Assembly (NCBI GenBank): GCA_019694755.1
Contig: JAIBBI010000024.1
Coordinates: 1 to 47,626 of the forward strand
Length of the DNA stretch: 47,626 nt
Direction: 5' to 3'
From: Gemmataceae bacterium
Lineage (GTDB): Bacteria > Planctomycetota > Planctomycetia > Gemmatales > Gemmataceae
The notes below the pieces were generated by a model, which was not told the origin of the DNA, did no database searches, and was given only the letters and a program-made list of their open reading frames with translations. Numbering within the stretch: the first letter of the stretch is position 1; each line of letters opens with the position of its first letter. Below, piece after piece: positions 3,334-17,659 of this stretch. The position numbers and the translations under genes are program-made.

Positions 3334-4395
3334 TCAATCAGGCGACGCGGCCTGACCTCCCCGCGCTGGTGACGGAGGAGATGGAGCGTACCCCTCGCGG
3401 TCCGATAACCAGTGACCAATCGATTCGCCGGCCAGTTTGCCGAGATCGGCCAAACCGATGACGACCATTGCACCGCCTGCAACGGCAATCGTGGCCGGGA
3501 CTGTGACGGGCGCGGTTGCTATCGCTCCTGCTAATGCAAAACCGCCCAAAGCCGCCGCACCAACTCCCGCCAACGTCCCGGTGCTGGCCACGACAACGCC
3601 GCGCGGGTCGTTTCGGTCGTAGCCCGCCTTGACAGCGCCTCCCCAGTTGAAGAGATCCAGCGGCGTGCCAATTCGACCGACGACCTTTCCGATCGTCCCG
3701 AGAGTTGAACCCAAGGAAGCGAGTCTGGTACCCGGCGCGCCCGGCAAGTCGAGCGCTGACTCGATCTTCCGAACGACGTCTGCCACGCCCCCGCGTGCGT
3801 TGTCGATTCGCGCGGTAGCTTCTTGCATTTGAAGAAGGGCACGTTCTTGCGCTAGCGCCTTTTCCGGGCCGTCGGGGAGTCTCATCGCGGCATGGTAGGC
3901 GTTGCGACCGGCCTCGAGATCGGCCATGCCTTTGACTGCTTCGTCGTTGATTTTTCCGGCGCTAGCCATGGCGTCATTGATGGCCACCTGGGCGGCATCG
4001 ACCTGTTTGCCTACCGAGGCCGCACCCGCTTTCACACCGCCATCGATCCCGCCGACCACTCCCTTGTCGTCGATCAAGGGCGAACCCGGCATTCTCGCCA
4101 CCTCATGCGGGCCGGCCGGATTCGGGACAGCGGGAACAACGCCCGGCGTTCCATTGTCGCCCGGGCCGCCGCGCGCCGGGACCGCATTATTGGCAACACT
4201 CTCACCGCCGCCGCCCGACGGACCACGGGCGTATTGCGGGTTCACGATGTTCTCCACCCCCGCGCGCACAGCGGGTTGGATCGAGTATCTCCACATAGCC
4301 TGCAAACCGAGTAGGATGCCGATCGTCACACCGATCAGCAGCACGGCTTGCAGTGCCTCCAGGCCGCGCTCGCGGCGAACAGCGAACCATGTCAT
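3334..4395 (-). CDS. Flp/Tad pilin-like N-terminus fused to a large helical and hydrophobic domain
   Basis: 353 aa from an ATG behind a very strong ribosome site (AGGAGGAGC). Residues 7-34 read RRERG then LEALQAVLL followed by a hydrophobic helix. This nearly copies the short pilin at 10223-10414 (KGLEALQAVLLVGV), so it looks like a class III prepilin signal cleaved after Gly11. A Gly/Pro-rich linker (57-105) leads to a long Ala-rich helical region (about 106-215). Next is a segment (222-330) with a Gly/Ala-rich hydrophobic hairpin (about 266-318) ending in ADLGKLAGESIGHWL. Such hairpins occur in pre-toxin or membrane-insertion regions of polymorphic toxins and in tape-measure-like proteins. 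That resemblance is by eye only. It is encoded downstream of the second CpaF-type ATPase, which suggests it is that ATPase's substrate. Ordinary Flp pilins are 50-80 aa, so this is far larger. Function unknown. Confidence 0.8.
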   Translation of the reverse strand: MTWFAVRRERGLEALQAVLLIGVTIGILLGLQAMWRYSIQPAVRAGVENIVNPQYARGPSGGGGESVANNAVPARGGPGDNGTPGVVPAVPNPAGPHEVARMPGSPLIDDKGVVGGIDGGVKAGAASVGKQVDAAQVAINDAMASAGKINDEAVKGMADLEAGRNAYHAAMRLPDGPEKALAQERALLQMQEATARIDNARGGVADVVRKIESALDLPGAPGTRLASLGSTLGTIGKVVGRIGTPLDLFNWGGAVKAGYDRNDPRGVVVASTGTLAGVGAAALGGFALAGAIATAPVTVPATIAVAGGAMVVIGLADLGKLAGESIGHWLSDREGYAPSPPSPARGGQAASPD

Positions 4396-4509
4396 GAATG
4401 CTCCTCCTAGTGCGTCAGGGGTTTGACAGTCGTTATGTGGCGGGATCGCGGCTCGATAAGAGCGACTCGATCAGCACCTGTAGTTGACCGGCGTTGTTTT
4501 GCTGGCCCT

Positions 4510-4537
4510 TGCAGCTCGAAAGCTAGATGATTCGGAC
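4510..4537 (-). promoter_or_regulatory. Weaker copy of the GTCC-GAA / N13 / GGCTG promoter-like motif
   Basis: Read on the minus strand, GTCCGAAT (4537-4530) is followed after exactly 13 bases by AGCTGCA (4516-4510). The spacing matches the strong copies elsewhere in the window, and the downstream box differs at its first base and its end. It lies 114 bases upstream of the pilin-fusion start at 4395 and inside the 3' part of no gene except the tail-side spacer of the small membrane protein. It may give the fusion gene its own promoter. Confidence 0.5.
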
Positions 4538-4583
4538 CGGATCATCTCGCCGGGAAACGTACGAGGGCGAGGTTGGCCGTTGA

Positions 4584-4799
4584 TCAGGTTGTCGCCAGGG
4601 GAGGGGCCGGAGTTTCCGCGGGAGACACGGGCACGCCCCGATGTATTGGCATGCACGCACACGGGAGACGGTTCGAGTCCTTCTTTTTGGACTGAAGTTC
4701 CCAGTGTGAACGCAAGAAAAGTGCCGCGAATACTATGCAGGTCAGCGACAGCAGGTAGTAACGGCCGACGGACAATTGGGATCTACGAGAGTCATTCAT
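4584..4799 (-). CDS. Small single-pass membrane protein, 71 aa, in the second CpaF cluster
   Basis: The ATG at 4799 lies 25 bases after the stop of the upstream ATPase gene, behind a purine-rich GAGG-type site. A longer frame exists, but it would run back into the ATPase gene, so the short start is preferred. The protein has a short basic N-terminus, one hydrophobic segment (about residues 14-29, YYLLSLTCIVFAALFL), then a polar stretch with a KKK cluster and two cysteines (CAC), and a Pro-rich tail. I do not recognise a family. Its position between an assembly ATPase and a pilin-like substrate suggests a minor pilin or platform subunit, but no prepilin cleavage motif is visible. Confidence 0.6.
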   Translation of the reverse strand: MNDSRRSQLSVGRYYLLSLTCIVFAALFLRSHWELQSKKKDSNRLPCACMPIHRGVPVSPAETPAPPLATT

Positions 4800-4824
4800 T
4801 TGGCACCTCAGGGAAAGTGATTCG

Positions 4825-5934
4825 TCAGGCCGGTAGGGTCCGGGCTGACTCTTCGAACACGTCTCTTGTTTCGCGCACCCGGTGGGCATGCTCGGAGGCG
4901 AGGATTTCGCGAGCAAACCGGGAGCGTTTCCCGGTCGGTTGTAGCCCCGCGGCGGATGAATGCTCGAAGATCGGGCGAATGCGATACCGCTCACCCTTGC
5001 CCAAGCCCGCCACCTCGCTGATTGCAATCACCCGCCGGGAGCCGTCGCTCAGGCGGCTCACTTGCGCTACGACGTGAATCGCCGAGGCGACTTGCGTCCG
5101 CGCGACGTACACCGGCAGAGCGACATCGTTGATCAGGCTTAATGTCTCGAGGCGCACGAGCGCGAGCAGTGGCGAACTGGCGTGCACCGTGCTCAGCGCG
5201 CCGTCGTGTCCGCTGAGCATCGACTGGATCAGATCCAGCGCCTCGCCGCGCCGCACTTCGCCTACGAGGATGCGGTCCGGCCGCATGCGCAACGAATCCA
5301 CGAACAAGTCGCGGATGGTTACGCCGCCTTTCCCATCGGCGTCGGCCGGCTTGGCCTCCAGGTACACCGTGTGTGGCTGCTGCAGTCGCAACTCCGAGGA
5401 GTCTTCGATCACCACCACCCGCTCGTTATCGGGGATCTCGCCCGAGAGTGCGTTGAGCAGCGAGGTCTTGCCCGATCCGGTCCCGCCGGAGACGATCAGG
5501 TTGCGATGCGTCTTGACCATTAGCGCCAAGTACTCGGCCGCGACCGGCGTCGACGAGCCGATCGATTGCAGCCAGTCGAGCGTAACCGTCGACTTGCGGA
5601 ACTTCCGGATGGACACGCACACGCCGACTCGGCTCGTCGGGGGCAGGATCACATGCACGCGGAACTGCTCCGGCTCCGGTAGCCGGGCGTCCATGCTGTG
5701 GCGATCGTCGAAGTCCCGCCCCACATACTCGGCGAGGTTCCGCACGGCCGCCATCAGCACCTGCTCATCCGCGAACCGCCGATCGACTGGCTCCAGTTTG
5801 CCGCGGCGCTCGCAATACACCTGGTTGGCCCCATTGATCAACACCTCGGTCACCGACTCGTCGTCGTAGAGCAGGTCCGCGACCGGGGCGAAGAAATACC
5901 GCAGGGTAGAGCGATAAACATCGGCGCGGGTCAT
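4825..5934 (-). CDS. CpaF/TadA-family secretion ATPase (second, short copy)
   Basis: 369 aa. This is a VirB11/CpaF-type hexameric ATPase that would power pilin or substrate movement at the inner membrane. The N-terminal domain (about 10-125) leads into Walker A GGTGSGKTS (150-158), an Asp box (VVVIEDSSEL), Walker B RILVGEVRRGEA (221-232) and a His box (GHDGALSTVHASSP, about 242-255). It lacks the roughly 270-residue N-terminal extension found on the Tad-locus copy at 14866-16800. Its start codon overlaps the stop of the upstream zinc-ribbon gene as ATGA, which implies translational coupling. No TadB/TadC platform genes sit beside it, so it may borrow the platform encoded in the main Tad locus or serve a reduced system. 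Confidence 0.93.
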   Translation of the reverse strand: MTRADVYRSTLRYFFAPVADLLYDDESVTEVLINGANQVYCERRGKLEPVDRRFADEQVLMAAVRNLAEYVGRDFDDRHSMDARLPEPEQFRVHVILPPTSRVGVCVSIRKFRKSTVTLDWLQSIGSSTPVAAEYLALMVKTHRNLIVSGGTGSGKTSLLNALSGEIPDNERVVVIEDSSELRLQQPHTVYLEAKPADADGKGGVTIRDLFVDSLRMRPDRILVGEVRRGEALDLIQSMLSGHDGALSTVHASSPLLALVRLETLSLINDVALPVYVARTQVASAIHVVAQVSRLSDGSRRVIAISEVAGLGKGERYRIRPIFEHSSAAGLQPTGKRSRFAREILASEHAHRVRETRDVFEESARTLPA

Positions 5935-6413
5935 GGTCGGGCCTCCGCACGGGCAGGTCGTACCGGCTCGCCTTGTTCAGCACTGGGCCAGCATAAGGCG
6001 ATAGTCACGGTGATTGCAGCCGCGATCCAGGTCGCTCGATGCGCCACCGGAATCTGCTTCCACCGGCCAAACATCCCGGTGCCTGCGCGAGGAGTCGCGT
6101 CAAGCCGCATCGGAGCGAACGGCACGTCGATCGGCGGCGCAGATTTCACGTCGACGAGTGGTCGGAATGGTAATTCGACGGGCGAGGGTGGTGGTGCCGG
6201 AGGAGGCAACGACTCGACAGGAACCGGATCGCCCGACGGCACGACCCGCGGCAGCCGCGTGGCCAGGAGCGATACCGCGATCTCGCCGCCGCATTCCGGG
6301 CACGCCGTTTCGATGGCGAGCCGAAACGCCAGTTCGGAGACCACCGATTCCGGCAGTCGGACCCGGCGGTGGCAGCGTTTGCAGTTCACGCGAGCCGTGA
6401 TCGGCTTGACCAT
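5931..6413 (-). CDS. Zinc-ribbon, Pro-rich, single-pass membrane protein
   Basis: 160 aa from an ATG at 6413. The frame stays open much further upstream, but that extension overlaps the divergent kinase and the shared promoter region, so I reject it. A promoter-like motif at 6471-6444 fits the 6413 start. Residues 11-41 form a CxxC...CxxC zinc-ribbon pattern (CKRC and CPEC). A Pro-rich linker (about 59-80) leads to a hydrophobic segment near 128-146 and a short basic tail. Zinc-ribbon/TM proteins are frequent in bacterial envelope and secretion clusters, but no specific family is recognised. It is the first gene of a minus-strand operon with the ATPase, and its stop overlaps the ATPase start by 4 bases. 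Confidence 0.72.
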   Translation of the reverse strand: MVKPITARVNCKRCHRRVRLPESVVSELAFRLAIETACPECGGEIAVSLLATRLPRVVPSGDPVPVESLPPPAPPPSPVELPFRPLVDVKSAPPIDVPFAPMRLDATPRAGTGMFGRWKQIPVAHRATWIAAAITVTIALCWPSAEQGEPVRPARAEARP

Positions 6414-6527: not shown

Positions 6528-7880
6528 ATGATCGTCGCCGCGCCACTTCGCGACTTGCTGATCCGGCTCGACGCCGTTTCGCCCGCACAATGGGACTCGG
6601 CTGCCGAATTGGCGGGCGACGACCACACGGCCACGCTGCGGATCATCGCGGCCCGGCGGGCCTGGTGGGCACCCGATGGCGTCGACTTCCCTGGCCTCAC
6701 CGCCTGGCAACTGCAGCAACTCGACAAACCCGATGCGGAACGCCGACTCCGCTGGGGTTCGTTGCTGGTGCTCGATCGCATCGGCGAAGGCGGCATGGGA
6801 GTCGTCTACCGCGGCTGGGATCTCGCCGAGCGCAGATGGGTCGCCATCAAGCGTCTGCGCAGCGACAGTAAAGAGAAGCGGGTTCGTTTCCGTCGCGAGG
6901 CCGACTTGCTCAGCCGCCTCGATCATCCGTCCATCGCCCGCTGCTTCGGACTTGTCCGCGTCGACGGGTTCGACGCGATTGTCATGGAGTACGTCCCGGG
7001 GCAGACGCTCTATTCGAAAGTCATGCGGTTGAAGAAAGCCGGGAAAGGCCTCGGTTGGCGACAGGTGGCCCGATGGGCCCTTGACGCCGTCGACGCTCTT
7101 GAACACCTGCATTCCCGCGAGATCGTTCACCGCGACGTCAAACCCGGCAACATCATGATTCGCCCTGACGGCCGGCTCAAGTTACTTGATCTCGGCCTCG
7201 CCAAGCTCACCCGGATCGACGACCCGATGGCACGCGGGGTCACGGTCCAGGGCCAGGTGCTGGGCACCTGCGACTACATGCCGCTCGAGCAATGGGACGA
7301 TGGCCGGGCCGTCACGGCCGCGGCCGACCTCTACGCCCTCGGGGCGACGCTGCATTTCGCGTTCACCGGCGAGCCGCCCCACCGCGCCGTGACTGGATAC
7401 CAGCTTCTGCAATCGCTGGGCCGCGGCGACACACCCACAGTCCGAGACCGCCGGCCCGACGTTTCCGCCGCATTCGACGAGCTATTGCAAACGCTCCTTG
7501 CCCGCGAGCCTTCTGAGCGCGGAACGGCCCGCGATCTGAAATGGCGGATCGGGCGTTTGCTCAACGAATCTTCGATATCGATCACGGCGAAGGGCGATGC
7601 ACCGACGGCCACACTGGCGGCGAAGCCGACGCAGTGCGACCAGAGTCCGCGGTGGATTGATCGGCTGGCCGACGGGCTGAGGCGGGCGGGGCGGGCATGG
7701 GACGATTGGCTGAGCCCCGCCAGCCCCGCAACTCGTGTCGCCCGCCGCGAGCGTTTCATCGTGCGCTGTCGACGGGGTGCGGATCACGTTCGCCGGTTGC
7801 CCTGGCGCGATGTCGGCCGGTGGCTCACAACCGGCGCGGCCCTTACGGCCGCCACCGTGGCCTGCCTGACTCGACTTTAG
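6528..7880 (+). CDS. Membrane-anchored Ser/Thr protein kinase next to the second CpaF cluster
   Basis: 450 aa. The ATG at 6528 follows GAGGAGGT and a promoter-like motif; upstream in-frame extension is unlikely. A roughly 75-residue N-terminal region precedes a complete kinase domain: GEGGMG loop (86-91), VAIK Lys108, HRDVKPGN with Asp203, and DLG (221-223) in place of DFG, a conservative change that keeps the metal-binding Asp. The activation segment has MPLEQ where planctomycete kinases usually have APEQ. A basic stretch and one C-terminal hydrophobic helix (about 430-450, LTTGAALTAATVACL) should anchor the kinase domain in the cytoplasm. It diverges from the zinc-ribbon/CpaF2 operon with a matching promoter motif, which suggests it phosphorylates components of that system or of the Tad proteins that carry FHA domains. 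Catalytic residues look intact. Confidence 0.95.
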   Translation: MIVAAPLRDLLIRLDAVSPAQWDSAAELAGDDHTATLRIIAARRAWWAPDGVDFPGLTAWQLQQLDKPDAERRLRWGSLLVLDRIGEGGMGVVYRGWDLAERRWVAIKRLRSDSKEKRVRFRREADLLSRLDHPSIARCFGLVRVDGFDAIVMEYVPGQTLYSKVMRLKKAGKGLGWRQVARWALDAVDALEHLHSREIVHRDVKPGNIMIRPDGRLKLLDLGLAKLTRIDDPMARGVTVQGQVLGTCDYMPLEQWDDGRAVTAAADLYALGATLHFAFTGEPPHRAVTGYQLLQSLGRGDTPTVRDRRPDVSAAFDELLQTLLAREPSERGTARDLKWRIGRLLNESSISITAKGDAPTATLAAKPTQCDQSPRWIDRLADGLRRAGRAWDDWLSPASPATRVARRERFIVRCRRGADHVRRLPWRDVGRWLTTGAALTAATVACLTRL

Positions 7881-7903
7881 TCTCTCAGGGATTCGAGGAC
7901 GTC

Positions 7904-8119
7904 ATGGACAACGCGAACCGGTACCGCCACGATCGCCTGCTCCTGATGCTGTCCTGGTGGCAGGCCTGGTATGACCTCGGCGACGACATCCGAGTCGAGG
8001 AGCTATACTTCGACCCGACCGATCAGGAGTTGGCTCATGAGTTGGATCGCTGTGTCGCCCGACGCCGCCGACTCGCCCTGCTTCTGGTCACTTCTCGAGC
8101 GGCTCGATCGTGTCGTTGA
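7904..8119 (+). CDS. Small hypothetical protein, 71 aa, convergent with the ECF sigma gene
   Basis: The ATG at 7904 is 24 bases after the kinase stop, with GAGGA upstream. The protein is polar, with a Trp/Tyr-rich N-terminal half (LSWWQAWYDLGDD), an acidic middle and an Arg-rich C-terminus. Its last 32 bases overlap the 3' end of the convergent sigma gene. No family is recognised. The ribosome site and operon-like spacing favour a real gene, but the overlap and short length leave doubt. Confidence 0.5.
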   Translation: MDNANRYRHDRLLLMLSWWQAWYDLGDDIRVEELYFDPTDQELAHELDRCVARRRRLALLLVTSRAARSCR

Positions 8120-8708
8120 ACTTCTCCAGGGCGGAGTTCCACAACCGGCTGATGGGTTTGGGCTCCTTGCCGAGCATCTCGGCAATCTCGGCGTTGGTGT
8201 GGCCGCCGTAGAACCGCAACTCGAACACTTGATACTCTTCGGGCGTGAGCAACTGCTCCACCTTCTCGTGAAACTCGGTCCAACTCAACAACTGGGCGGG
8301 CGACATCGTCCTGGCGACGGCCAACTCTTCGAGGATGACGCTGTCGCCGTTGTCCTCGACACCGCGGAGCTTGTCGCGGCGTGCCCGTCCGGCCAAGTCC
8401 CGCAGCATCATCCGAGTCTTGAAGGCGACGAAGCCGAAGAAGTCCTTCGGCGTGGTGGGGCGGACGCCACTGTTCCACGCTACCAGCAGCTTTTCGTAGA
8501 GTCGGTTCGCGATACTGGTCACGCCGTGACGGTTTTTCAGGCTGGGAAAGTCGTAGCCGAGGATCTTGGAGATGCGGTCGCGAATGGCGTCGTATGCCAG
8601 TGCGAAGACCTGATCCCAAGCCTCCCGGTCGCCCTGCCGGGCTTTCGCGAGCAATGCGGTGAGTTCGAAATTTTGCGAAATCGAAGTCGGCGGGGCGGGC
8701 TTCGGCAT
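8088..8708 (-). CDS. ECF-type RNA polymerase sigma factor at the head of the Tad locus
   Basis: 206 aa. Region 2 (about residues 15-110) includes WDQVFALAYDAIRDRI and FFGFVAFKTRMMLRDLAGRARR. Region 4 (about 145-200) has the helix-turn-helix LLTPEEYQVFELRFYGGHTNAEIAEMLG split as usual for planctomycete ECF factors. A charged linker separates the regions. No anti-sigma gene with a transmembrane segment lies next to it. It is transcribed divergently from the Tad operon, with 88 bases between the starts, and a copy of the conserved bipartite motif (8731-8758) faces the Tad side. It is therefore a candidate regulator of that motif, but nothing in the sequence proves it. Confidence 0.9.
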   Translation of the reverse strand: MPKPAPPTSISQNFELTALLAKARQGDREAWDQVFALAYDAIRDRISKILGYDFPSLKNRHGVTSIANRLYEKLLVAWNSGVRPTTPKDFFGFVAFKTRMMLRDLAGRARRDKLRGVEDNGDSVILEELAVARTMSPAQLLSWTEFHEKVEQLLTPEEYQVFELRFYGGHTNAEIAEMLGKEPKPISRLWNSALEKFNDTIEPLEK

Positions 8709-8730
8709 GACAGCTCTCCCGAATTGCCCG

Positions 8731-8758
8731 GTCCGAACAGCGGGAACGGCGGGCTGAG
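8731..8758 (+). promoter_or_regulatory. Promoter-like motif GTCCGAAC-N13-GGCTGAG
   Basis: GTCCGAAC (8731-8738) and GGCTGAG (8752-8758) with a 13-base spacer, 38 bases before the start at 8797. It is one of seven strong copies in the window that share the same spacing and orientation toward the downstream gene. Confidence 0.75.
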
Positions 8759-8796
8759 ACTATGGGTCATTCGCCATTGTACTGCCGGAGGTCATC

Positions 8797-10011
8797 ATGT
8801 CCGATTCACGGAATTCCGTTGCGGAATCTGCCATTCCTGCGCTGCCGGTGGTCCTGATCGGGGCGGCCATTTGCCTGATCGTATTCAAGTCGATTGATCT
8901 GGGGATCGCGGGCCCGCCGGTCCGACCGGCCGAGCCGGCACGGCAGACGGGCCAAGCGCCCGACGTTACTACGGCTACAGCCTCTTCGAGGCTAGCAGAA
9001 AATGGGCGCTCGACCTCGGCTGCGCCAACCACGACTCCCCAGTTTGAGACCAAACCGACAACGCCACGCGGGTCTTCCGGCGCTAGGGATCCAGGTCCGC
9101 CGAAGTTGGGCGAATCGAGTGGGAGCCCGACGCCAACGGAGAATGGCGGGAGTTTCGGCGATGGGCCAGCGCCGAAGGTCGAAGGGACCTCTGAATCATC
9201 GAAGTCGAAGGGCAATACAGTGCCGGAGACCAAGGTGGACAGTGCAATCTCCGGATCTTCTTCCGAATCGGCAGGATCATCTACGCTGAACGGTCAACTA
9301 CCGCCGCCCGGAAGGTCTGGTGGCGAATCGGATGAGAAAAAGGAACCGGTTCTTGTGACCATGCCCAGTCGGTGTTGGGTGCCAGTGCCCGGGGAGTCTT
9401 TGCAGGTTTGGACGGATCGCGGTCTGTACGGCAATTTCCGCCTCGTTTCGGTGTCGCCCGCCGAACTGGCCGGCACATGCGACGCCGGCGTCGAGAAGTT
9501 GCTGCGACTTCCGATCAGCCAGGTTTGGGGCGTGGCATCGCGAGGTAGACTCTTCGTGCCACGCGGCGATTCGTTCGTGGACGCGGTGACGGTGTACAAG
9601 TTCGACACGGGACGCCGGAAGTTTGAGCGGGCGGACCGAGCGCCCGAGGCCGGCCGGCCGGCCGTTTTCGAGAGTGGTTTCTCCCGACTGCCCGGTCGGG
9701 TCGTTTACGATCCAAAGTCGAAGGACCTATGGATAGTCGTCTTGCTGCGAGACATACCCCAGCAGATCGACCCCGAAGACGTCGGCACGATACGCACGGC
9801 TCACCTGACTTTCACTTACGATCATGTCGCTGGGCAGTATGGCGCCGAGTCAGAGCAGCAACGGGCGGATCGCCGGCACAAAGTGCAGTCGGAGTTCCGA
9901 TCTCGGCAGTATTTCGAGCAGCTCTACCGCCAGGGCCGAAATGTGCCCTTCGATCTGTTCCTGCCTTCCGGTGTTCAGCCGCCTGCGCCGAAGGCGAACA
10001 AGGCGAACTGA
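8797..10011 (+). CDS. Membrane-anchored protein with low-complexity linker, first gene of the Tad region
   Basis: 404 aa. The ATG follows a CCGGAGGTC ribosome site. A single hydrophobic segment near residues 13-33 is followed by a long Ser/Thr/Pro/Gly-rich linker (about 38-165). The C-terminal domain (about 170-390) is of mixed character, with several Arg/Phe-rich strands and an Arg/Gln-rich helix, and the tail is KANKAN. This suggests an anchored protein whose C-terminal domain sits outside the inner membrane. I do not recognise the domain. It carries its own promoter-like motif and is separated from the pilin gene by a strong terminator hairpin, so it may be transcribed apart from the rest of the locus. 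Confidence 0.85.
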   Translation: MSDSRNSVAESAIPALPVVLIGAAICLIVFKSIDLGIAGPPVRPAEPARQTGQAPDVTTATASSRLAENGRSTSAAPTTTPQFETKPTTPRGSSGARDPGPPKLGESSGSPTPTENGGSFGDGPAPKVEGTSESSKSKGNTVPETKVDSAISGSSSESAGSSTLNGQLPPPGRSGGESDEKKEPVLVTMPSRCWVPVPGESLQVWTDRGLYGNFRLVSVSPAELAGTCDAGVEKLLRLPISQVWGVASRGRLFVPRGDSFVDAVTVYKFDTGRRKFERADRAPEAGRPAVFESGFSRLPGRVVYDPKSKDLWIVVLLRDIPQQIDPEDVGTIRTAHLTFTYDHVAGQYGAESEQQRADRRHKVQSEFRSRQYFEQLYRQGRNVPFDLFLPSGVQPPAPKANKAN

Positions 10012-10222: not shown

Positions 10223-10414
10223 ATGACCACGACCATCCGCAAGTTCGCCCGCCGCAGCAAGGGCCTCGAAGCCCTCCAGGCCGTCCTCCTCGTCGGCGTC
10301 GCGTTCCTCATCTGCACCGGCTTGACCGCCGTGTGGAACAAGAGCAAGGCTGACGTCCAAAAGGGAGTCGACGATCTCCTTAAGAATGGTGCGGCCACGT
10401 CCCCCGCTCAGTGA
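10223..10414 (+). CDS. Flp-like type IVb pilin, major pilin candidate
   Basis: 63 aa, the usual Flp size. The ATG at 10223 follows AAGGGAGAT. A basic leader (residues 1-13) ends at Gly14, then comes LEALQAVLLVGVAFLICTGL, a hydrophobic helix, and a short charged tail. A Gly followed by a Glu-containing hydrophobic helix fits a class III prepilin signal processed by CpaA, encoded next door. The Glu is at +2 from the Gly, whereas canonical Flp pilins have it at +5, so the cleavage site is unusual. The same signal is used by the 353-aa fusion at 3334-4395. It would form the pilus fibre after export through the CpaF/TadB/TadC machine. Confidence 0.85.
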   Translation: MTTTIRKFARRSKGLEALQAVLLVGVAFLICTGLTAVWNKSKADVQKGVDDLLKNGAATSPAQ

Positions 10415-10497: not shown

Positions 10498-11067
10498 ATG
10501 AACATACTCGACGCTGACACGCTCCGCGGTATGTATCGCCGGATGCTGGCCGTCCCCGCGAGTCGTCGCTGGGCGTTCGGACTGCTGATGCCGGGCTTTG
10601 CCGTCGCCATCGCCCTGCTTTGTGACGCCGACGACTCCCTGACGATGCGGTGCGTGTTGCTGCCGATGCTGACGATCGTCACGCTGACCGATCTCGCCTG
10701 GCGGCGGATTCCCAACTGGATCGTGGTGCCGTCAATGGCGTGGTCGGTCGGCATCGCAGCGGTTGCCGGGGTGCTGCCATCCGCACTTACCGGCGGCGCG
10801 ATCTGCTTTGCCGCCATGCTCGGGTTGCACCTGCTCTTCCGCGGCGGCGAGGGCGACGTGAAGCTCTTTGCCGTTATCGGAGCCGCGCTCGGCGGCTCGG
10901 CCGGGCTCGAAGCGATGCTCGCGGGCTACCTGCTGGCGGCGGCCTTCGCTGTCCTCCTGATCGCCGGCCGGCTAACGCGCCGTTCCACCGGCCCCGTGCT
11001 CGCGGGCCATTTGCCGATGGCGCCGTTCTTCAGCCTGGCAGTGCTGCTTACTGCGAGCGGAAACTGA
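10498..11067 (+). CDS. cpaA: Prepilin peptidase, CpaA/TadV family
   Basis: 189 aa, a multi-pass membrane aspartyl protease that removes pilin leader peptides. The two catalytic motifs are visible: TLTDLAWRRIPNW (first Asp in loop 1) and GGEGDVKL, the GxGD motif. At least five hydrophobic segments surround them. It lacks the N-methylation domain of PilD, which is normal for Tad systems. The ATG at 10498 follows GGGAGACATC. It is the third gene of the locus, and its substrates should be the short pilin, the TadE/TadG-like pseudopilins and possibly the 353-aa pilin fusion. Confidence 0.92.
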   Translation: MNILDADTLRGMYRRMLAVPASRRWAFGLLMPGFAVAIALLCDADDSLTMRCVLLPMLTIVTLTDLAWRRIPNWIVVPSMAWSVGIAAVAGVLPSALTGGAICFAAMLGLHLLFRGGEGDVKLFAVIGAALGGSAGLEAMLAGYLLAAAFAVLLIAGRLTRRSTGPVLAGHLPMAPFFSLAVLLTASGN

Positions 11068-11080
11068 GGGAGTCATACCA

Positions 11081-11242
11081 ATGAACCGCCGACCTGTTCG
11101 TCGCGCTCATGCGTCGTTCGACATGGTGCTCTGCACCGCGGCCCTGCTGCCGATCGCCGCCGGACTGTACGCCATCGTGAAGTCATGCCTGGCCGGCTAC
11201 TTTCAGATCCTTGGCGCCACCATCGGTTGGCCGCTGATGTGA
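11081..11242 (+). CDS. Very small membrane protein, 53 aa, in the Tad operon
   Basis: The ATG at 11081 has GAGGGAG upstream and sits 13 bases after the cpaA stop. The TGA at 11242 lies 17 bases before the next gene. The protein has a basic N-terminus (NRRPVRRAHAS) and then a hydrophobic stretch covering about residues 14-31, with a second hydrophobic C-terminal patch. The tight spacing on both sides and a good ribosome site argue for a real gene. It may be a minor pilin or an inner-membrane accessory; no family is recognised. Confidence 0.65.
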   Translation: MNRRPVRRAHASFDMVLCTAALLPIAAGLYAIVKSCLAGYFQILGATIGWPLM

Positions 11243-11259: not shown

Positions 11260-11919
11260 ATGCGCCGCTATTTTCACTGGTCTGCCGAGCGAGGCGTTTC
11301 CTACTCGCTGCCGTTCGCGATGATCATTCCGTTCTACCTCACCTTCATGGCGATGACGGTGGAGATCGCGTTTCTACTGCAGGCGAAGCTCGGGGCGATG
11401 GCGGCGGCGCAGTCGGCCGTGCGGGCCGCTAAGGTCTGGCAGTCGGCGCAGCCGGCCACGCTCGCCGAGGCGCGGATTCGCCAGGCCGCATTCACGACAC
11501 TTGCGGCGTTCGTCGGCGGGCGGCAGAGCGAAATCAACGCCGCCGGGCCCATTCCTTCCGACGCCGAGGCGGGGGCAGACGACTACGCCGCCGCCAGCAA
11601 CCTCGCGCTGCAATCCCGCGCGGTGGACGCGGAGTTTCTCCGCCGCAAGTACCGCCACGGCGCGGCGCGGACGGAGCTGCAACTGGAAATGCCGAAGTCC
11701 GACCCGCGCGGAATGATCACAGTCACAATCAAGTTCCGCGCACCGCTGTACGTACCCCTGGCGTCGCGGTTTCTGGATCCCGACAGGCGGGCGCCCTTCG
11801 AGTATCCGCTGACGGCGTCGGCCACGCTGCCCGCCGACGGTCCGGTGAGCCGGGATGGCAAGCTGGGAATTGACTACGGATCCGACTTACTAGAGCGCTC
11901 ACGGGAGACCTCGCCATGA
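11260..11919 (+). CDS. TadE-like pseudopilin
   Basis: 219 aa. The ATG at 11260 follows CCGGAGGT. The N-terminus has a short basic leader and a hydrophobic helix (YSLPFAMIIPFYLTFMAMTVEI, about residues 15-36 in two runs), then an amphipathic helix rich in Ala/Gln. This matches TadE/TadF pseudopilins, with ERG just before the helix as a possible CpaA site. The remainder is a mixed extracytoplasmic domain. It overlaps the next gene by 4 bases (ATGA), so the two are translationally coupled. The family assignment rests on the N-terminal pattern and locus position. Confidence 0.75.
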   Translation: MRRYFHWSAERGVSYSLPFAMIIPFYLTFMAMTVEIAFLLQAKLGAMAAAQSAVRAAKVWQSAQPATLAEARIRQAAFTTLAAFVGGRQSEINAAGPIPSDAEAGADDYAAASNLALQSRAVDAEFLRRKYRHGAARTELQLEMPKSDPRGMITVTIKFRAPLYVPLASRFLDPDRRAPFEYPLTASATLPADGPVSRDGKLGIDYGSDLLERSRETSP

Positions 11920-13442
11920 TCCTTCAATCACCTCGACGATCGGGCAACATTCTGCTGATCTCGATCTTTCCATTTTTGGCGCTGCTCATGCTGATCGCGT
12001 TGCAGGTCAACACGGCTCGCCTGGTTACCAGCCGGGTCATGGCGCAACACGCGGCCGACGCCGCCGCCCATGCAGCCGCACTGGAGATGGCCCGGGCCAT
12101 GAACGCCATCACGGCGTTGCAGCACTTAATTGGCCAGCTCAATGCCCTGGGCGCGTTGGTCATGAGCTTCGGCGGGGTAGAGCTGGAAGAAGGCAAGATC
12201 TTCCCTCTCAACAACGGCTCCCTTCGACGTGCCTACGCCGACGCGCTCAGGTATGGCACGACCGTCCACCCGGTTGTCGGCTACGAGCTCCTCAGAGAAT
12301 CGAAAAGCGCGTCCGGCGCATCGATCGGCCGGTCGCGGCGCCGACTGCAAGAGGTCATGACCTGGGCCTACCGGGTCCACGCGGCCGGGGGCGTGCTCGC
12401 GACCGAGCCCGTGCTTTACAAGTTCCGCGGAGTCGGGATCCGCCTGGTCAATGCCGCCGTCACCATAGAGAAAAACGTCGTCTTCGAGTGGAAGGTGCTC
12501 GCGACGATGGAACAATTGGCCAAGCACGTGTTCCTGCCCCTCAAGCACATCAGCAACCCGACGATCATACCGTACCTGCACGACTACTCGATCCGATGGG
12601 CGGAGGACGCGCCGGTACGGGCGGCGGCCGCCGCCCGCGAAGTCGCTCGGACGTACGGTGATATCGACAGCACCCTTTTCCCGGCGGTCGACGGTCGGCC
12701 CGCGCTGCGGTTGCCGATCGAACACGAGCCGCAGCTTTTTCACAACAGCCCCTACCTGGAGCAGTCGCAGATGGTCCGGGCGACGACGCCCTGGGTGCAA
12801 TACTATCGACCGCCCATCCTCAGCTTCAGTCGCCAGATTCTGCCGCTCTCGCGGTTTGCCCGGTTCTATCACGAGGAATCAAACGGGTTCACGCTGAAGA
12901 TGGCCGTCTGGAAGTCGAAGGAACTGAACCTCAAAAATGTGATCCCCGGCGGCAGGCCGACCCGGTTGTTCCGACTGATCGGCACCGACCCCGGAGTCGC
13001 CGACAAGGGCAGGGAGATATGGAACGTCCAGGCCGGCTCGGCCCGGGCCGACGAACTGTTCTGCATCCTTGGCTTCGCCCGGCACGCGCCGGTCAGCGTG
13101 ATGGGGTATCCGGCCTTCCCGCAGACACAACCGGACGGCATCGCCGGCTCGGCTCAGGCCATGATCTACAACGCCAATCCGCAAAATGGCGCGACACGGA
13201 GCCGCTGGCAGCCCGTCGCGGGCTGGGACACGCTCAACTGGGAAAATGAGGTCCCGGAATTCCAATGGGGCAAGGACTACGGCAAGAACGAGAACGTGCC
13301 GCAGCCGCGAGTCTTCCTCAACTGGCAGGTGAAACTCGTGCCGATGACCCGACTGAAGGACGCGGCCGGTACGCAGAGCAGTCAGCTCAACCGCATCCTG
13401 GGGCGGACGATCGCCGACCGCGGCATTGCCAACCTGCACTGA
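11916..13442 (+). CDS. TadG-like pilus assembly protein
   Basis: 508 aa. The N-terminus (RRSGNILLISIFPFLALLMLIALQVNTARL) and the following Ala-rich helix (HAADAAAHAAALEMARAMNA) are typical of the TadG/Flp assembly N-terminal region, where the long helix follows the membrane anchor. The remaining roughly 420 residues are extracytoplasmic and unassigned; no von Willebrand factor A MIDAS motif of the kind some TadG proteins have is visible. It starts inside the stop of the TadE-like gene. It is inferred to act as a minor pilin or priming component. Confidence 0.75.
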   Translation: MILQSPRRSGNILLISIFPFLALLMLIALQVNTARLVTSRVMAQHAADAAAHAAALEMARAMNAITALQHLIGQLNALGALVMSFGGVELEEGKIFPLNNGSLRRAYADALRYGTTVHPVVGYELLRESKSASGASIGRSRRRLQEVMTWAYRVHAAGGVLATEPVLYKFRGVGIRLVNAAVTIEKNVVFEWKVLATMEQLAKHVFLPLKHISNPTIIPYLHDYSIRWAEDAPVRAAAAAREVARTYGDIDSTLFPAVDGRPALRLPIEHEPQLFHNSPYLEQSQMVRATTPWVQYYRPPILSFSRQILPLSRFARFYHEESNGFTLKMAVWKSKELNLKNVIPGGRPTRLFRLIGTDPGVADKGREIWNVQAGSARADELFCILGFARHAPVSVMGYPAFPQTQPDGIAGSAQAMIYNANPQNGATRSRWQPVAGWDTLNWENEVPEFQWGKDYGKNENVPQPRVFLNWQVKLVPMTRLKDAAGTQSSQLNRILGRTIADRGIANLH

Positions 13443-13458: not shown

Positions 13459-14178
13459 ATGTTAATACGACAGCAACCACCGCGCCGGGCCGCCGCCGCC
13501 CTCGAGTTTGTTCTCGTGTTCCCACTACTGATGACCTTGACCGTCACCGGATGGTGGGCCGCGCATCTCGGCTTCGTAAAACTCGGCACACTCATCGACG
13601 CGCAATCCCAGGCGTGGACAAACCGAGTGCAGGCGGAGCCCGGAACGCCCTTCGACATCCGACAGCCGTCGCTCGACAGCCAGGTGAAAGTCGAGATCCG
13701 CAGGGAATCAACCATTGCCCCGCCGTTCAAGCTCGTGGGGCCGATGGTGGCTGTCACCGAGGAAATCAACTGCGAAAGGACCTGGGACGCGACCGATTTT
13801 CCATTTCCCCGACTGCCTGAGCGGATCCACCCGCACACCCTTCAGCTCGTGGCCTTCGCGGAGTTGATCCCGGTGATTGCGAGGTTCGCCCCAGGCATGG
13901 CAGGGTACGCGGCATTGGACCCGTGGAGTAATCCCGAGCTGGTCCGCTACGTGCCGGAGGGACTCATTTTCCTGGTTGGAAGGGTCCAGGCCCTCGTCAC
14001 AATCGCAGGATCGACGCCCGCGCTCGCGGCCGCCATTGGCCCACTTGCGGCGGCCGAGGCAAAGGCGATTGCTTCGCTCAACTTCGGGCTGGCCGCCCAT
14101 TACGCCGACGAGATCCGTGTCGTCGTCACGGCATTGCGCGCCGTCCCCGACCTCATCCGGGCCGGCAGGCCGGAATAG
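13459..14178 (+). CDS. TadE-family pseudopilin
   Basis: 239 aa. The ATG at 13459 follows AACGGAGG, 16 bases after the upstream stop. Residues 9-30 read RRAAAALEFVLVFPLLMTLTVT, the classical TadE motif: Arg-rich leader, Ala/Ala cleavage context, then a Glu-Phe-containing hydrophobic helix ending in FPLL. The rest is a mixed domain with an Ala-rich helical C-terminus. It is the last gene before a new promoter-like motif at 14208. Confidence 0.85.
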   Translation: MLIRQQPPRRAAAALEFVLVFPLLMTLTVTGWWAAHLGFVKLGTLIDAQSQAWTNRVQAEPGTPFDIRQPSLDSQVKVEIRRESTIAPPFKLVGPMVAVTEEINCERTWDATDFPFPRLPERIHPHTLQLVAFAELIPVIARFAPGMAGYAALDPWSNPELVRYVPEGLIFLVGRVQALVTIAGSTPALAAAIGPLAAAEAKAIASLNFGLAAHYADEIRVVVTALRAVPDLIRAGRPE

Positions 14179-14264: not shown

Positions 14265-14855
14265 GTGAATGCGTATCGCTGGTTAATTCCGTTGGGACTC
14301 GGACTCGTTGCGGGCGTATCGCACTACTTCGTCCTCAAAGGCGCGACCCGCACCGTTGCCGTGCTCGTGGCAGCCGACAACCTCAAGCCCGGCGAGTTGC
14401 TCACCGAAGATCGCGCGACCATTATCACGATTCGGCTCGACGGACCGCCTCAATACCTCGATTCGCACATCCCGGTCGATGGCCGCCACTCCTTTTTTGA
14501 ATTTCCACTTCGACGGGCGATCGGCAAAGGCGAGCCAATTCTGCGGGCGGATGTTGCTGTCACCGCTCAGCGCATCGACCTGCGCGACGGTGAGTCGCCG
14601 GTCCGGCTTGCCGTGGGACACAGCAGCAGGCTGCCGGAGAAACTTGATGTCGGCATGTCGCTGAAGCTACGGCACTCCCACTCCGGCGTTCATGGTCCGT
14701 ATCGTCTTCTCGGCATCACGGGGTCGGAGGTTGCCTGTACCGTGATCCTCGCCGTGCCGGACGGCGACCCGCTCGTCACCAAGTTGCCCGACGAGCGAAA
14801 GCAGTTCGCCGCCGGCATTGCCTCCGTCGAAATCGCGAAACCTCGTCAGCGCTAG
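14265..14855 (+). CDS. cpaB: CpaB/RcpC-like SAF-domain protein
   Basis: 196 aa from a GTG at 14265, chosen because GAGGAGGCCG sits 8 bases upstream and the promoter-like motif ends 29 bases before it. An N-terminal transmembrane helix (about residues 5-25) is followed by a SAF domain (about 30-100): VAVLVAADNLKPGELLTEDRA and a later RRAIGKGEPILRADV, the typical pattern of CpaB. The C-terminal part is a beta-rich domain. CpaB works in the periplasm with the secretin, which is not encoded in this window. Confidence 0.85.
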   Translation: MNAYRWLIPLGLGLVAGVSHYFVLKGATRTVAVLVAADNLKPGELLTEDRATIITIRLDGPPQYLDSHIPVDGRHSFFEFPLRRAIGKGEPILRADVAVTAQRIDLRDGESPVRLAVGHSSRLPEKLDVGMSLKLRHSHSGVHGPYRLLGITGSEVACTVILAVPDGDPLVTKLPDERKQFAAGIASVEIAKPRQR

Positions 14856-14865
14856 GAGCGCTTCC

Positions 14866-16800
14866 ATGCGACTGGAATACGTCAACACGATCACGGGCAA
14901 GTCCGGCGCACGCGATCTGCCACCGATGCTCAACCCCGTATGGATCGGCAACCATCCCGGCAGCCATCTGGTCCTCGACAGTCCCTACCTGGGGCCCGAG
15001 ACCGGCGTCTTCGACAACGACGTATCCGGGGGCGACGGCTGGCGATTCTGGAATCGCAACGGCAAGCCGATCAAGGTCGGCGACGCCCTGCTGACAGACC
15101 GCGATCAGTTCGTTCGGCTGACGCAGCCCCGGGTGCAGATCGAGTGCTGGCCGTACGTCGTCACCGCCCTGCTGACTCCCGAGGAATGGGTCACGGAGGC
15201 CGACGGCGCGCGCCGACTGGACCGGGCCTGCGCGGATGTCGTGCGACAGGTTCACCGCGAGTTGGTCGAGCTGCACCCCAATGATCCGGCCGACCGCAAC
15301 GAGTGGCTTAAGGACGGATACATTCACGACCTCGAGAGCCAGATCCTGGAGTTGGTAGCCCGTCGACCGGACTTCCCGGGCGACGATTTGGGTCACACGG
15401 AGCTTGGCGACCATCTCGCCGGGGTAGCGGTGCGTTCCGCACTGGTCCGGCAACTGCTCGCACGGACGGAAACGGGCACGGCGGCACTTCGGGCGACCGA
15501 CTCCTGGGGCCGGATGCGGATCGCCCTCCCGGAAGCCGAGGCCGACCTAGACCGGCTGGCGGCCGACGCGGCGCGAGCCCTGGGGCTCGACTCGCACGCC
15601 GACATCTCCCGCCAAATGACAAGCGTCGACGACGAGTTCTGGGCGTACTGGAATACGCTGCTCACCCGCCGCGAGTCACTGCCTCCTCAACTGTGCCGGT
15701 ATCTTGCACTGCGGCGTGTGAAGGAGGAGATCAAGGACATATGGTTTGGCTTCGGTCCGCTCGAAGAGTTGCTGAAGGACCCGTGCGTCAATGAGATCAT
15801 GATCGTCGATGCGGACCACATTTTTGTTGAGAAGTCCGGGCACATCGAGAACTCCGGCCGGCGGTTCCTCACCGATCCGCTCACTGTCATCCAGCGGATC
15901 ATGGCCCGGGCGAATCGGCAGATCAACACCGCCCAACCGATGGCCGATGCGCGGATGCCCGACGGTAGTCGGGTCAACGCCGTTATCGAGCCACTCGCCC
16001 TGAAAGGGCCTTGCCTGACCATTCGCCGGTTCCCGACGCACCGCGTCACGATCGAGGATCTGGTGCAACGGCTCGACTCGCTCACGCCGGCGGCGAGCGA
16101 GTTTCTCCGCGTCGCGGTTGCCAACCGGCGGAACATCATCATCGCTGGCGGGACCGGCACAGGCAAGACGACGATGCTCAACTGCCTAAGCGCGTTCATC
16201 CCCGATAAGGAGCGAATCGTCACCATCGAGGACACGGCCGAATTGCAGATCCAGAAAGAGCACGTCGTCACGCTGCAGGGCCGGCAGAGCAACTCGGAGG
16301 GGGCCGGCGCGGTCAGCATCCGGGATCTCGTGAAGAACGCACTCCGCATGCGGCCGGACCGGATCGTCGTCGGCGAGTGTCGCGGCGGCGAGGCGATCGA
16401 CATGCTCCAGGCGATGAACACCGGCCACGACGGTTCGATGACCACGCTGCACGCCAACACGCCCGCGGGTGTGATCCGCCGGCTCGAAGTACTCGTGCAG
16501 CAGAACACGGACAGCACGCTCCCGGTAGAGTCGATCCATGCCCAGATCGCCTCAGCTGTGGATTTGGTTGTCCAACTGGGCATCGTCCTCGGCTCAGGAA
16601 CGAAACGGAAGGTGGTGACGGAGATCACCGAGGTCGGTGTCACCGGCACGGGGCGGCTGCGGCTCGTGCCGCTGTTTCGCCGGGACGAGGGCGAGCCGCT
16701 TCGCCCGACCGGCTGCCTGCCGTCGTTCCTGCCCGAACTGATCGCCACCGGGCTGGTACGCGATGCGGTCGACTTCGTCCGCGCTGTCGAAGAGACGTGA
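14866..16800 (+). CDS. cpaF: CpaF/TadA ATPase with an N-terminal FHA-like domain
   Basis: 644 aa, much longer than the 370-450 aa typical of CpaF. About residues 20-95 resemble a forkhead-associated fold: WIGNHPGSHLVL, then RFWNRNGKPIKVGDALLT. A helical region (100-290) leads to the VirB11-type ATPase core: Walker A GGTGTGKTT (428-436), Asp box IVTIEDTAEL, Walker B RIVVGECRGGEA (from 499), and His box GHDGSMTTLHANTP. It energises pilus assembly through TadB and TadC, encoded just downstream. The FHA-like segment lacks a clear SxxH pair, so binding of phosphothreonine is uncertain; the ATPase call is firm. Confidence 0.95.
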   Translation: MRLEYVNTITGKSGARDLPPMLNPVWIGNHPGSHLVLDSPYLGPETGVFDNDVSGGDGWRFWNRNGKPIKVGDALLTDRDQFVRLTQPRVQIECWPYVVTALLTPEEWVTEADGARRLDRACADVVRQVHRELVELHPNDPADRNEWLKDGYIHDLESQILELVARRPDFPGDDLGHTELGDHLAGVAVRSALVRQLLARTETGTAALRATDSWGRMRIALPEAEADLDRLAADAARALGLDSHADISRQMTSVDDEFWAYWNTLLTRRESLPPQLCRYLALRRVKEEIKDIWFGFGPLEELLKDPCVNEIMIVDADHIFVEKSGHIENSGRRFLTDPLTVIQRIMARANRQINTAQPMADARMPDGSRVNAVIEPLALKGPCLTIRRFPTHRVTIEDLVQRLDSLTPAASEFLRVAVANRRNIIIAGGTGTGKTTMLNCLSAFIPDKERIVTIEDTAELQIQKEHVVTLQGRQSNSEGAGAVSIRDLVKNALRMRPDRIVVGECRGGEAIDMLQAMNTGHDGSMTTLHANTPAGVIRRLEVLVQQNTDSTLPVESIHAQIASAVDLVVQLGIVLGSGTKRKVVTEITEVGVTGTGRLRLVPLFRRDEGEPLRPTGCLPSFLPELIATGLVRDAVDFVRAVEET

Positions 16801-16807
16801 GGATACC

Positions 16808-17659
16808 ATGGCGGATCAAATGCTCCTGAGCCTCGGATCGGCAGCGACGGCGGGCGCGGTGGCGGCCGGGTACGAACGGGTCGCCGACCTAACCGATTGG
16901 CTCAATCGGCGGACCGGCGACGGAATCGCCAGGCGAATGAAGTCCGTCGGAATGGACGTAACCGTGCTACCGGCCTGGCTGCGGTTGTGGCGCGGGCTGA
17001 CGCTGGCGACATTTCTCGGGTGGTGGTTCTTTGCCCAGTCGCCGCCCCTGGCGGTGAGTCTCGCGTTTCTCGTCCAGCAACTCGGGCCGCTCTGGTTCGA
17101 CGTGCGCGTGGAAGCCCGGCGGAAGCTCGTCAACGAGCAGACCGCCAACGCGGCCCGCAAGCTCGCCGGCCAGGTCCGCGTCGGTATGCCGTTCGGCGAA
17201 GCATTGCAAGCCGTGGCCGCCGAATCACCCGCGCCTCTGGGACTATCGCTCCGCCGGGCGACGCAACAACTCGACCAGGGCAAGTCGGTCCGCGACGCCC
17301 TCGCCGACCTGCGGCAGAATCTGCGGACGGATGCGATCGCCCTGCTGACCTCCGCATTACTCGTCGCTTCCGAGAGCGGCGGCAAGCTGGCGGATCTGCT
17401 CGACAAGATCAGCCTCAGCCTCGACGAGTTTCAGCGGGTGCAACGCAAGCGCGAGTCGGACACGGCATCGGGTCGGCTCATGGTGCGGATCATGGCCGTG
17501 TTTCCCGTGGGGTTCTTCGCCTTCTTTTACGGCACCGCACCGGACCAGTTCGACAAGGTGCTCACCACACTCCCGGGGCAACTGGTGCTCGCGACTGCCA
17601 TCGTACTCACTTACGTGAGCATCCGGTGGGCCCGCCACATCCTGGCGCGCAAGGGGTGA
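16808..17659 (+). CDS. tadB: TadB inner-membrane platform protein
   Basis: 283 aa. The ATG at 16808 is 7 bases after the cpaF stop, with GTGAGG upstream. It contains a T2SS-F domain (about 105-250) with ARKLAGQVRVGMPFGEALQAVA and the paired helices LTSALLVASESGGKLADLLDKIS. Hydrophobic segments lie near 55-85 and at the C-terminus (ILTYVSIRWARHIL). TadB and TadC form the inner-membrane platform that CpaF rotates or drives. Gene order cpaF-tadB-tadC is canonical. Confidence 0.92.
   Translation: MADQMLLSLGSAATAGAVAAGYERVADLTDWLNRRTGDGIARRMKSVGMDVTVLPAWLRLWRGLTLATFLGWWFFAQSPPLAVSLAFLVQQLGPLWFDVRVEARRKLVNEQTANAARKLAGQVRVGMPFGEALQAVAAESPAPLGLSLRRATQQLDQGKSVRDALADLRQNLRTDAIALLTSALLVASESGGKLADLLDKISLSLDEFQRVQRKRESDTASGRLMVRIMAVFPVGFFAFFYGTAPDQFDKVLTTLPGQLVLATAIVLTYVSIRWARHILARKG

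What the first reader, a model, noticed from the sequence alone, without database searches (positions are those of the whole stretch)
3334..6413. Reduced CpaF system with a pilin-tethered hydrophobic domain: a possible undescribed export or contact system
A zinc-ribbon membrane protein, a CpaF-type ATPase, a 71-aa membrane protein and a 353-aa protein with a pilin leader form a compact minus-strand cluster. The pilin leader is fused to a Pro-rich linker, a long helical region and a Gly/Ala hydrophobic hairpin like those in membrane-inserting or pre-toxin regions. No TadB/TadC, secretin or pseudopilins are encoded beside it. It could use the main Tad platform to display a membrane-active cargo on a pilus-like stalk.
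Basis: partly seen in the sequence, partly recalled or inferred. Interest (0 to 1): 0.86.

Follow-up and report, generated by a model that had tools for sequence, protein, structure and literature searches.

The report
Pilin-leader polymorphic toxins in Tad loci
In this planctomycete and its relatives, the gene cluster that builds a Tad pilus also carries proteins in which a pilin start is joined by a flexible linker to interchangeable end-domains, two of them shared with known bacterial weapon proteins, which suggests that a pilus may carry or deliver toxins.

Summary
The four-gene block is real. It is not a separate 'reduced' system. Its short CpaF belongs to a subfamily found in 76 of 397 planctomycete genomes, often as the first gene of the Tad operon, and the window's own Tad operon lies 4-12 kb away. 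The 353-aa protein is a modular Flp-type prepilin: its leader resembles the locus's Flp pilin (45% identity) and is followed by a Gly/Pro-rich linker, a helical hairpin and a 48-residue hydrophobic hairpin. Five more such fusions were found in four other planctomycete loci. Their leaders are homologous; their C-terminal parts are pairwise unrelated. One tandem pair has 91%-identical leader DNA and unrelated C-termini. Two of these C-termini are polymorphic-toxin domains: one matches the tip of a PAAR-like/RHS protein, the other (DUF6973) follows an RHS core and occurs in a solved Bacteroides T6SS effector. So relatives carry toxin-type cargo on a Tad pilin leader, a trafficking mode not found in the literature searched. 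The window's own C-terminus has no relatives; membrane activity is inferred from hydropathy alone. Tad-dependent export and toxicity are untested; no clear immunity gene was seen.

The parts
5931..6413 (-). zinc-ribbon, Pro-rich, single-TM protein (160 aa) overlapping the short CpaF start
   Evidence: CxxC-x(23)-CxxC and C-terminal TM in the translation; same pair upstream of short CpaF in G077, G105, G024, G088 and, with a CxxxxC variant, G204; no BLAST-level relatives
4825..5934 (-). short CpaF-type ATPase (369 aa), second Tad motor
   Evidence: T2SSE 2.2e-50, TIGR03819 1.5e-76; own subfamily, 76/397 class genomes; 30/30 in one clade, weak basal support 0.53
4584..4799 (-). 71-aa ORF with one TM; doubtful gene, possibly small accessory or immunity protein
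   Evidence: GAGG upstream of ATG, but third-position GC 0.64 and no counterpart in relatives
3334..4395 (-). modular Flp-type prepilin with cargo (353 aa)
   Evidence: leader homologous to local Flp and to the five other fusions; C-terminal part unrelated to any
4363..4395 (-). prepilin leader peptide, residues 1-11, ending RRERG
   Evidence: sequence; matches Flp leader ARRSKG
4288..4362 (-). pilin hydrophobic helix, residues 12-36 (Q at mature position 5)
   Evidence: hydropathy 2.11; predicted helix 3-51
4066..4242 (-). Gly/Pro-rich linker, residues 52-110
   Evidence: composition; disordered in the model
3751..4068 (-). long helical hairpin, residues 110-215
   Evidence: helices 110-171 and 177-215, pLDDT up to 96
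3433..3576 (-). 48-residue Gly/Ala/Val hydrophobic hairpin, residues 274-321
   Evidence: Kyte-Doolittle maximum 2.04, one uninterrupted stretch
6528..7880 (+). Ser/Thr protein kinase with C-terminal TM, between cargo block and Tad operon
   Evidence: kinase motifs in the translation
8088..8708 (-). ECF sigma factor
   Evidence: PF07638 1.7e-13
8797..10011 (+). 404-aa TM protein with Ser/Gly/Pro-rich linker, unknown
   Evidence: no Pfam or NCBIfam family
10223..10414 (+). Flp major pilin (63 aa)
   Evidence: leader match
10498..11067 (+). prepilin peptidase (TadV type)
   Evidence: PF01478 1.1e-10
11081..11242 (+). 53-aa TadE-like small pilin
   Evidence: position and sequence; equivalents in L070, L074, L239
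11260..11919 (+). TadE-like minor pilin
   Evidence: PF07811 0.0014, below gathering
11916..13442 (+). TadG-like minor pilin
   Evidence: PF13400 2.4e-5
13459..14178 (+). TadE-like minor pilin
   Evidence: PF07811 0.0022, below gathering
14265..14855 (+). CpaB/RcpC-like protein
   Evidence: SAF domain 2.8e-4
14866..16800 (+). N-extended CpaF (644 aa), main motor; FHA type in relatives
   Evidence: T2SSE 3.2e-57; clade 18/18, support 0.93; FHA domain detected in relatives
16808..17659 (+). TadB platform protein
   Evidence: T2SSF 4.4e-19
17666..18556 (+). TadC platform protein
   Evidence: T2SSF 1e-13

Best explanation
The 353-aa protein is a modular Flp-type prepilin of the Tad pilus encoded in the same window, and one of a family of pilin-leader polymorphic effectors. 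Steps: (1) TadV cuts after RRERG, as for Flp. (2) The mature N-helix enters the Tad filament or sits at its tip, assembled on TadB/TadC by one or both CpaF motors. (3) The Gly/Pro linker lets the C-terminal cargo hang outside. (4) On contact the cargo acts on, or is passed to, a neighbouring cell. In relatives the cargo includes RHS/T6SS-type toxin domains. In this genome it is most likely a membrane-active helical domain ending in a hydrophobic hairpin. Shown by sequence: homologous leaders, unrelated C-termini, location in Tad or short-CpaF loci, and two C-termini shared with RHS proteins. Inferred: processing, filament incorporation, delivery, toxicity.
For: Leader 45% identical to the window's Flp. 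Five more leader-linker-cargo proteins in four genomes: G085 378 aa, G077 310 and 359 aa in tandem, casp150-mb.69 241 aa (all starting directly after short CpaF), and G255 472 aa (just upstream of Flp-TadV). BLAST between N-termini is significant for 14 of 15 pairs (E 5e-4 to 1e-31); no C-terminal pair reaches E 0.1. The G077 tandem pair has 91.5% identical leader DNA over 141 bp, then unrelated sequence, the usual mark of C-terminal exchange. The G085 C-terminus is homologous to the C-terminal tip of a 1340-aa PAAR-like/RHS protein (5e-8; 48.5 bits against at most 25.8 for 500 shuffles). The G077 310-aa C-terminus is DUF6973 (5.6e-9), which follows an RHS core in G052 (4e-10) and matches PDB 9uu0, a Bacteroides fragilis T6SS effector (3.5e-4). 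At the same site G088 has two proteins with a shared N-terminus and different ends, one a T4-type lysozyme (2.5e-7).
Against: The window's own C-terminus matches nothing and its predicted fold is unreliable. No immunity gene was identified beside any fusion. Leaders carry Gln, not Glu, at mature position 5, as the local Flp does. The G088 pair lacks a pilin leader. No secretin lies in the window. No experiment bears on export or toxicity. Only six fusions are known, mostly in MAGs.
Confidence: 0.6

Rival explanations
1. Modular adhesin or sensor pilin: the C-terminal parts bind surfaces or matrix, as vWA or lectin modules do on other type IV pilins, and are not toxins.
For: Modular pilins with adhesive modules are common (PMC8179133); Kil Tips expose variable domains proposed to interact with prey (PMC12075869); no immunity genes were found; the window, L140 and L233 C-termini have no toxin match.
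Against: Two of six C-termini are domains found at RHS toxin tips, one also in a T6SS effector; exchange of C-termini behind near-identical leaders.
Confidence: 0.22
2. Inner-membrane accessory of the Tad machine: the 48-residue hydrophobic stretch makes the window's protein a three-TM membrane protein, anchored and never exported; a divergent assembly factor.
For: The hydrophobic stretch 274-321 is strong enough to be a TM hairpin; the gene lies with a motor ATPase.
Against: Three relatives checked (P0005-P0007) have no C-terminal hydrophobic stretch; an assembly factor should be conserved, but the C-terminus has no relatives in 248 genomes.
Confidence: 0.13
3. Displaced or decaying cassette: the block is a relic of the Tad 5' end in which the fusion has lost a former toxin domain.
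For: The block is inverted relative to the Tad operon; third-position GC of the fusion is lower (0.68 against 0.82).
Against: Intact frame of 353 codons, good ribosome site, CpaF with intact Walker A motif, conserved zinc-ribbon partner.
Confidence: 0.05

Closest known systems
Myxococcus Kil system (Tad-like) with interchangeable Tips, PMC8460266 and PMC12075869
   Same: Tad machine; FHA-type CpaF in related loci; variable domains carried on pilin subunits; a contact role is proposed for both
   Different: Kil Tips are TadE/F/G-like beta-fold minor pilins; the extra domain of KilN4 matches no solved structure. Here the carrier is an Flp-type leader with a flexible linker, two cargos are RHS/T6SS toxin domains, and there are two CpaF motors. 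Kil was reported in Myxococcales, Bdellovibrionales and Bradymonadales; planctomycetes are not mentioned in the 2025 paper
Modular type IV pilins (S. sanguinis PilB/PilC; 264 architectures), PMC8179133
   Same: functional module grafted behind a pilin N-terminus by a linker
   Different: that survey used the IPR012902 pilin signature; the 15 commonest modules listed are adhesive, peptidase or unknown, none a polymorphic toxin
Polymorphic toxin systems (RHS/PAAR, T5SS, T6SS, T7SS), PMC3482391
   Same: conserved trafficking N-terminus, exchangeable C-terminal toxin domain; two domains shared directly with RHS proteins
   Different: the 2012 survey text has no hit for prepilin, pilus or pili; no clear immunity gene here
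Canonical Tad pilus (Caulobacter cpa, Aggregatibacter flp-tad)
   Same: Flp, TadV, CpaF, TadB, TadC, TadE/G-like, CpaB-like
   Different: canonical systems use one bifunctional CpaF (PMC12019362 abstract); here two; no secretin gene in the window

Membership tests
Tad (type IVc) pilus locus | Flp pilin, prepilin peptidase, CpaF ATPase, TadB and TadC, TadE/TadG minor pilins | tested here: met
   TadE hits below gathering score
Tad (type IVc) pilus locus | outer-membrane secretin in the locus | tested here: not met
   none on contig C28; three PF00263 proteins on other contigs; whether one serves this Tad is unknown
Flp/class III prepilin | short basic leader ending in Gly, then about 20 hydrophobic residues | tested here: met
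Flp/class III prepilin | Glu at mature position 5 | tested here: not met
   Gln5, but the locus's own Flp also has Gln5
Modular pilin | pilin N-terminus plus linker plus a module not specific to pilus biology | tested here: met
   for relatives by domain match; for the window's protein only by the lack of any pilin match in the C-terminal part
Polymorphic toxin | homologous N-termini with unrelated C-termini | tested here: met
Polymorphic toxin | C-terminal domain shared with other toxin systems | tested here: inconclusive
   met for P0005 and P0006; not met for the window's P0001
Polymorphic toxin | immunity gene next to the toxin | tested here: inconclusive
   only small single-TM ORFs near the cargo genes; 71-aa ORF doubtful
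Kil system | CpaF with N-terminal FHA domain | tested here: inconclusive
   detected in relatives G047, G052 and a myxococcal MAG; window's CpaF is N-extended and in the same clade but has no FHA hit
Kil system | needleless T3SS and prey killing | not tested
   no search for T3SS genes was made; killing needs experiment

The most novel reading that the evidence does not exclude
A new trafficking class of polymorphic toxins: Tad pili of planctomycetes carry exchangeable toxin modules on Flp-type pilin subunits, possibly with a dedicated second CpaF motor, and deliver them to neighbouring cells on contact.
Probability: 0.45. Interest if true: 0.92.

Novelty: new variant of a known kind. Interest (0 to 1): 0.8.

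Why it matters
Whether Tad-like machines such as Kil deliver toxins is stated as open by the Kil authors (PMC8460266). Here the link is written in the genes: RHS/T6SS-type domains joined to a Tad pilin leader, in Tad loci. That makes the question directly testable with one protein, and would add a pilus to the known ways by which polymorphic toxins are carried. It would also suggest contact weapons in planctomycetes.

Tried and rejected
(1) Separate reduced secretion system: rejected, since short CpaF heads the Tad operon in relatives. (2) The G007 match to the C-terminus runs antisense through a cytochrome-type gene: chance. The G016 match has three stops: chance. (3) The G045 match of P0007 lies among ClpP-like and glucosidase-like genes: chance. 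(4) AlphaFold of P0001 and of the P0007 C-terminus without alignments: mean pLDDT 51-52, not used for fold claims; Foldseek best E 0.23, long helical hairpins only (colicin hairpins among them), not evidence. (5) Plasmid, phage and viral-contig searches for the C-termini: nothing. (6) Defence-system and PHROG libraries: nothing useful for P0001. (7) P0008 as M15 peptidase: motif impression only, no family hit. (8) Promoter and terminator scan at chance level. (10) TadE-type long pilins were separated from Flp-type fusions by leader sequence.
Full report
WHAT IS THERE. The window is contig C28 of a planctomycete genome assembly (G000; 5.6 Mb in 335 contigs). Genomes placed in the same family include one recorded as Fimbriiglobus sp. 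(G085 = JALHQU010000267.1) and ones recorded as Gemmataceae bacterium, so the host is probably Gemmataceae. The four reading frames are as described. The 71-aa ORF is weakly supported. The other three are solid.

IT IS PART OF THE TAD LOCUS. The window's Tad operon runs from Flp (10223) to TadC (18556) on the plus strand, with prepilin peptidase, TadE/TadG-like pilins, a CpaB-like protein, an N-extended CpaF, TadB and TadC. The 369-aa CpaF is a different subfamily from other planctomycete CpaFs: its relatives share 57-71% identity and everything else is at or below 48%; wider sampling extends the subfamily to 50-77%. It occurs in 76 of 397 class genomes. Among 97 distinct loci, at least 29 have a prepilin peptidase within 8 kb downstream, mostly within 2.6 kb, usually with Flp between (G047, G333 and others were missed by that pattern but read the same way). 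In several Gemmataceae and in G204 a zinc-ribbon/Pro-rich/TM protein precedes it. In 59 genomes, all six with the short CpaF also have a CpaF frame of at least 600 codons, as against one of the other 53 (counted). In the tree the N-extended CpaFs form one clade (18/18, support 0.93) and the short ones another (30/30, basal support only 0.53). So the window's block is best read as the inverted or displaced 5' end of its Tad locus. A second CpaF beside the main motor is itself a departure from the single bifunctional CpaF described for the Tad pilus (PMC12019362 abstract).

THE 353-AA PROTEIN AND ITS RELATIVES. The leader and first helix match the local Flp (45% identity). A leader profile finds convincing equivalents on long frames, within the family's 95 genomes, only in G000, G085 and G077. 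Further ones are in casp150-mb.69 (L140) and G255 (L233). Positions: G085, 31 bp after short CpaF; G077, two tandem copies, the first overlapping it; L140, overlapping by 4 bp; G255, between the short CpaF and Flp-TadV but not next to the ATPase; window, about 430 bp after it. N-terminal regions are significantly similar in 14 of 15 pairs; C-terminal regions are not similar in any pair. In the G077 tandem pair, 141 bp of leader DNA is 91.5% identical and the rest unrelated.

THE CARGO. G085: residues 210-336 match the C-terminal tip of P0012, a 1340-aa protein of G097 with a weak PAAR-like match, DUF6531 and eleven RHS repeats. BLAST E is 5e-8; the score is 48.5 bits with the best of 500 shuffles at 25.8. 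P0012 is followed 12 bp later by a 180-aa gene, a candidate immunity gene; no gene of that kind lies between the G085 fusion and its Flp. G077 first copy: DUF6973 (5.6e-9). The same domain follows a fragment of RHS core in G052 (the core part matches Tse5, Tre23 and TccC) and matches 9uu0, deposited as a Bacteroides fragilis T6SS effector (3.5e-4). G077 second copy has an HH motif but no match. G088 carries at the same site two proteins that share an N-terminal segment (69% over 55 residues) and differ behind it; one is a T4-type lysozyme (2.5e-7). They lack a pilin leader, so they are analogues in place, not members.

THE WINDOW'S CARGO. Residues 110-215 are predicted as a long helical hairpin with good confidence; the rest is low. 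Residues 274-321 are one hydrophobic stretch. No relatives were found in 248 class genomes, plasmids, phages, Pfam, NCBIfam or PDB. A membrane-active domain is a reasonable inference from hydropathy, no more.

MECHANISM. Cleavage by TadV, assembly by TadB/TadC and CpaF, and display outside the cell follow from the family roles of these proteins. That the cargo is delivered and toxic is inferred from the RHS/T6SS relationship. The flexible linker allows a place either at the tip or along the filament.

KNOWN SYSTEMS. Kil pili of Myxococcus expose variable domains on TadE/F/G-like Tips and kill prey (PMC12075869); the 2021 authors call it unclear whether Kil secretes toxins (PMC8460266). Modular pilins are widespread, with adhesive or peptidase modules (PMC8179133). 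A search of the open-access library for papers holding both 'prepilin' and 'polymorphic toxin' returned only the 2021 Kil paper, and the 2012 polymorphic toxin survey does not mention pili. Most subscription papers and preprints are not held, so novelty is provisional.

LIMITS. Six fusions; mostly MAG contigs, though five separate assemblies show the linkage. No immunity gene established. No secretin on the window's contig. No experiment.

Noticed in passing
window 4825-5934 and 14866-16800; L194, L198: Two CpaF-type motors in one Tad locus, an N-extended (FHA) one and a short one, in planctomycetes and in a MAG labelled Myxococcales (a second, labelled Polyangiaceae, has the short one with FHA-type neighbours); in L194 the FHA-CpaF frame also carries a TadB-type domain (871 aa).
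   Followed up: partly
L082, 1.3-3.7 kb downstream of the short CpaF (G265:C51): Six tandem, similar Flp genes between short CpaF and TadV.
   Followed up: no
L076 6497-8191 (G088:C200): Two proteins sharing a hydrophobic plus 55-residue N-terminal segment, one with a T4-lysozyme domain, the other with M15-like motifs, between short CpaF and three Flp genes.
   Followed up: partly
L070 4746-4898; L071 8405-8492: Small single-TM ORF downstream of the cargo gene with similar sequence in two genomes; possible immunity or accessory protein.
   Followed up: partly
L259 (G052:C1:4356000-4364000): Array of RHS C-terminal cassettes (repeated GRWLSEDPIGF...NLYRY ends with different tails), one of them DUF6973.
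   Followed up: no
L233 7168-8586: Pilin-leader protein with a linker of about 200 residues of Gly-Ser-Gly/Asp repeats.
   Followed up: no
window 21466-29076 and 35361-38042: Very large ORF (2536 aa) beginning with a subtilisin-like domain and ending in a dockerin-like tail; an 893-aa protein on the other strand has a similar tail.
   Followed up: no
window 6528-10011: Ser/Thr kinase, ECF sigma factor and a 404-aa TM protein separate the cargo block from the Tad operon; Tad loci of relatives also have kinases and FHA-like proteins nearby.
   Followed up: no
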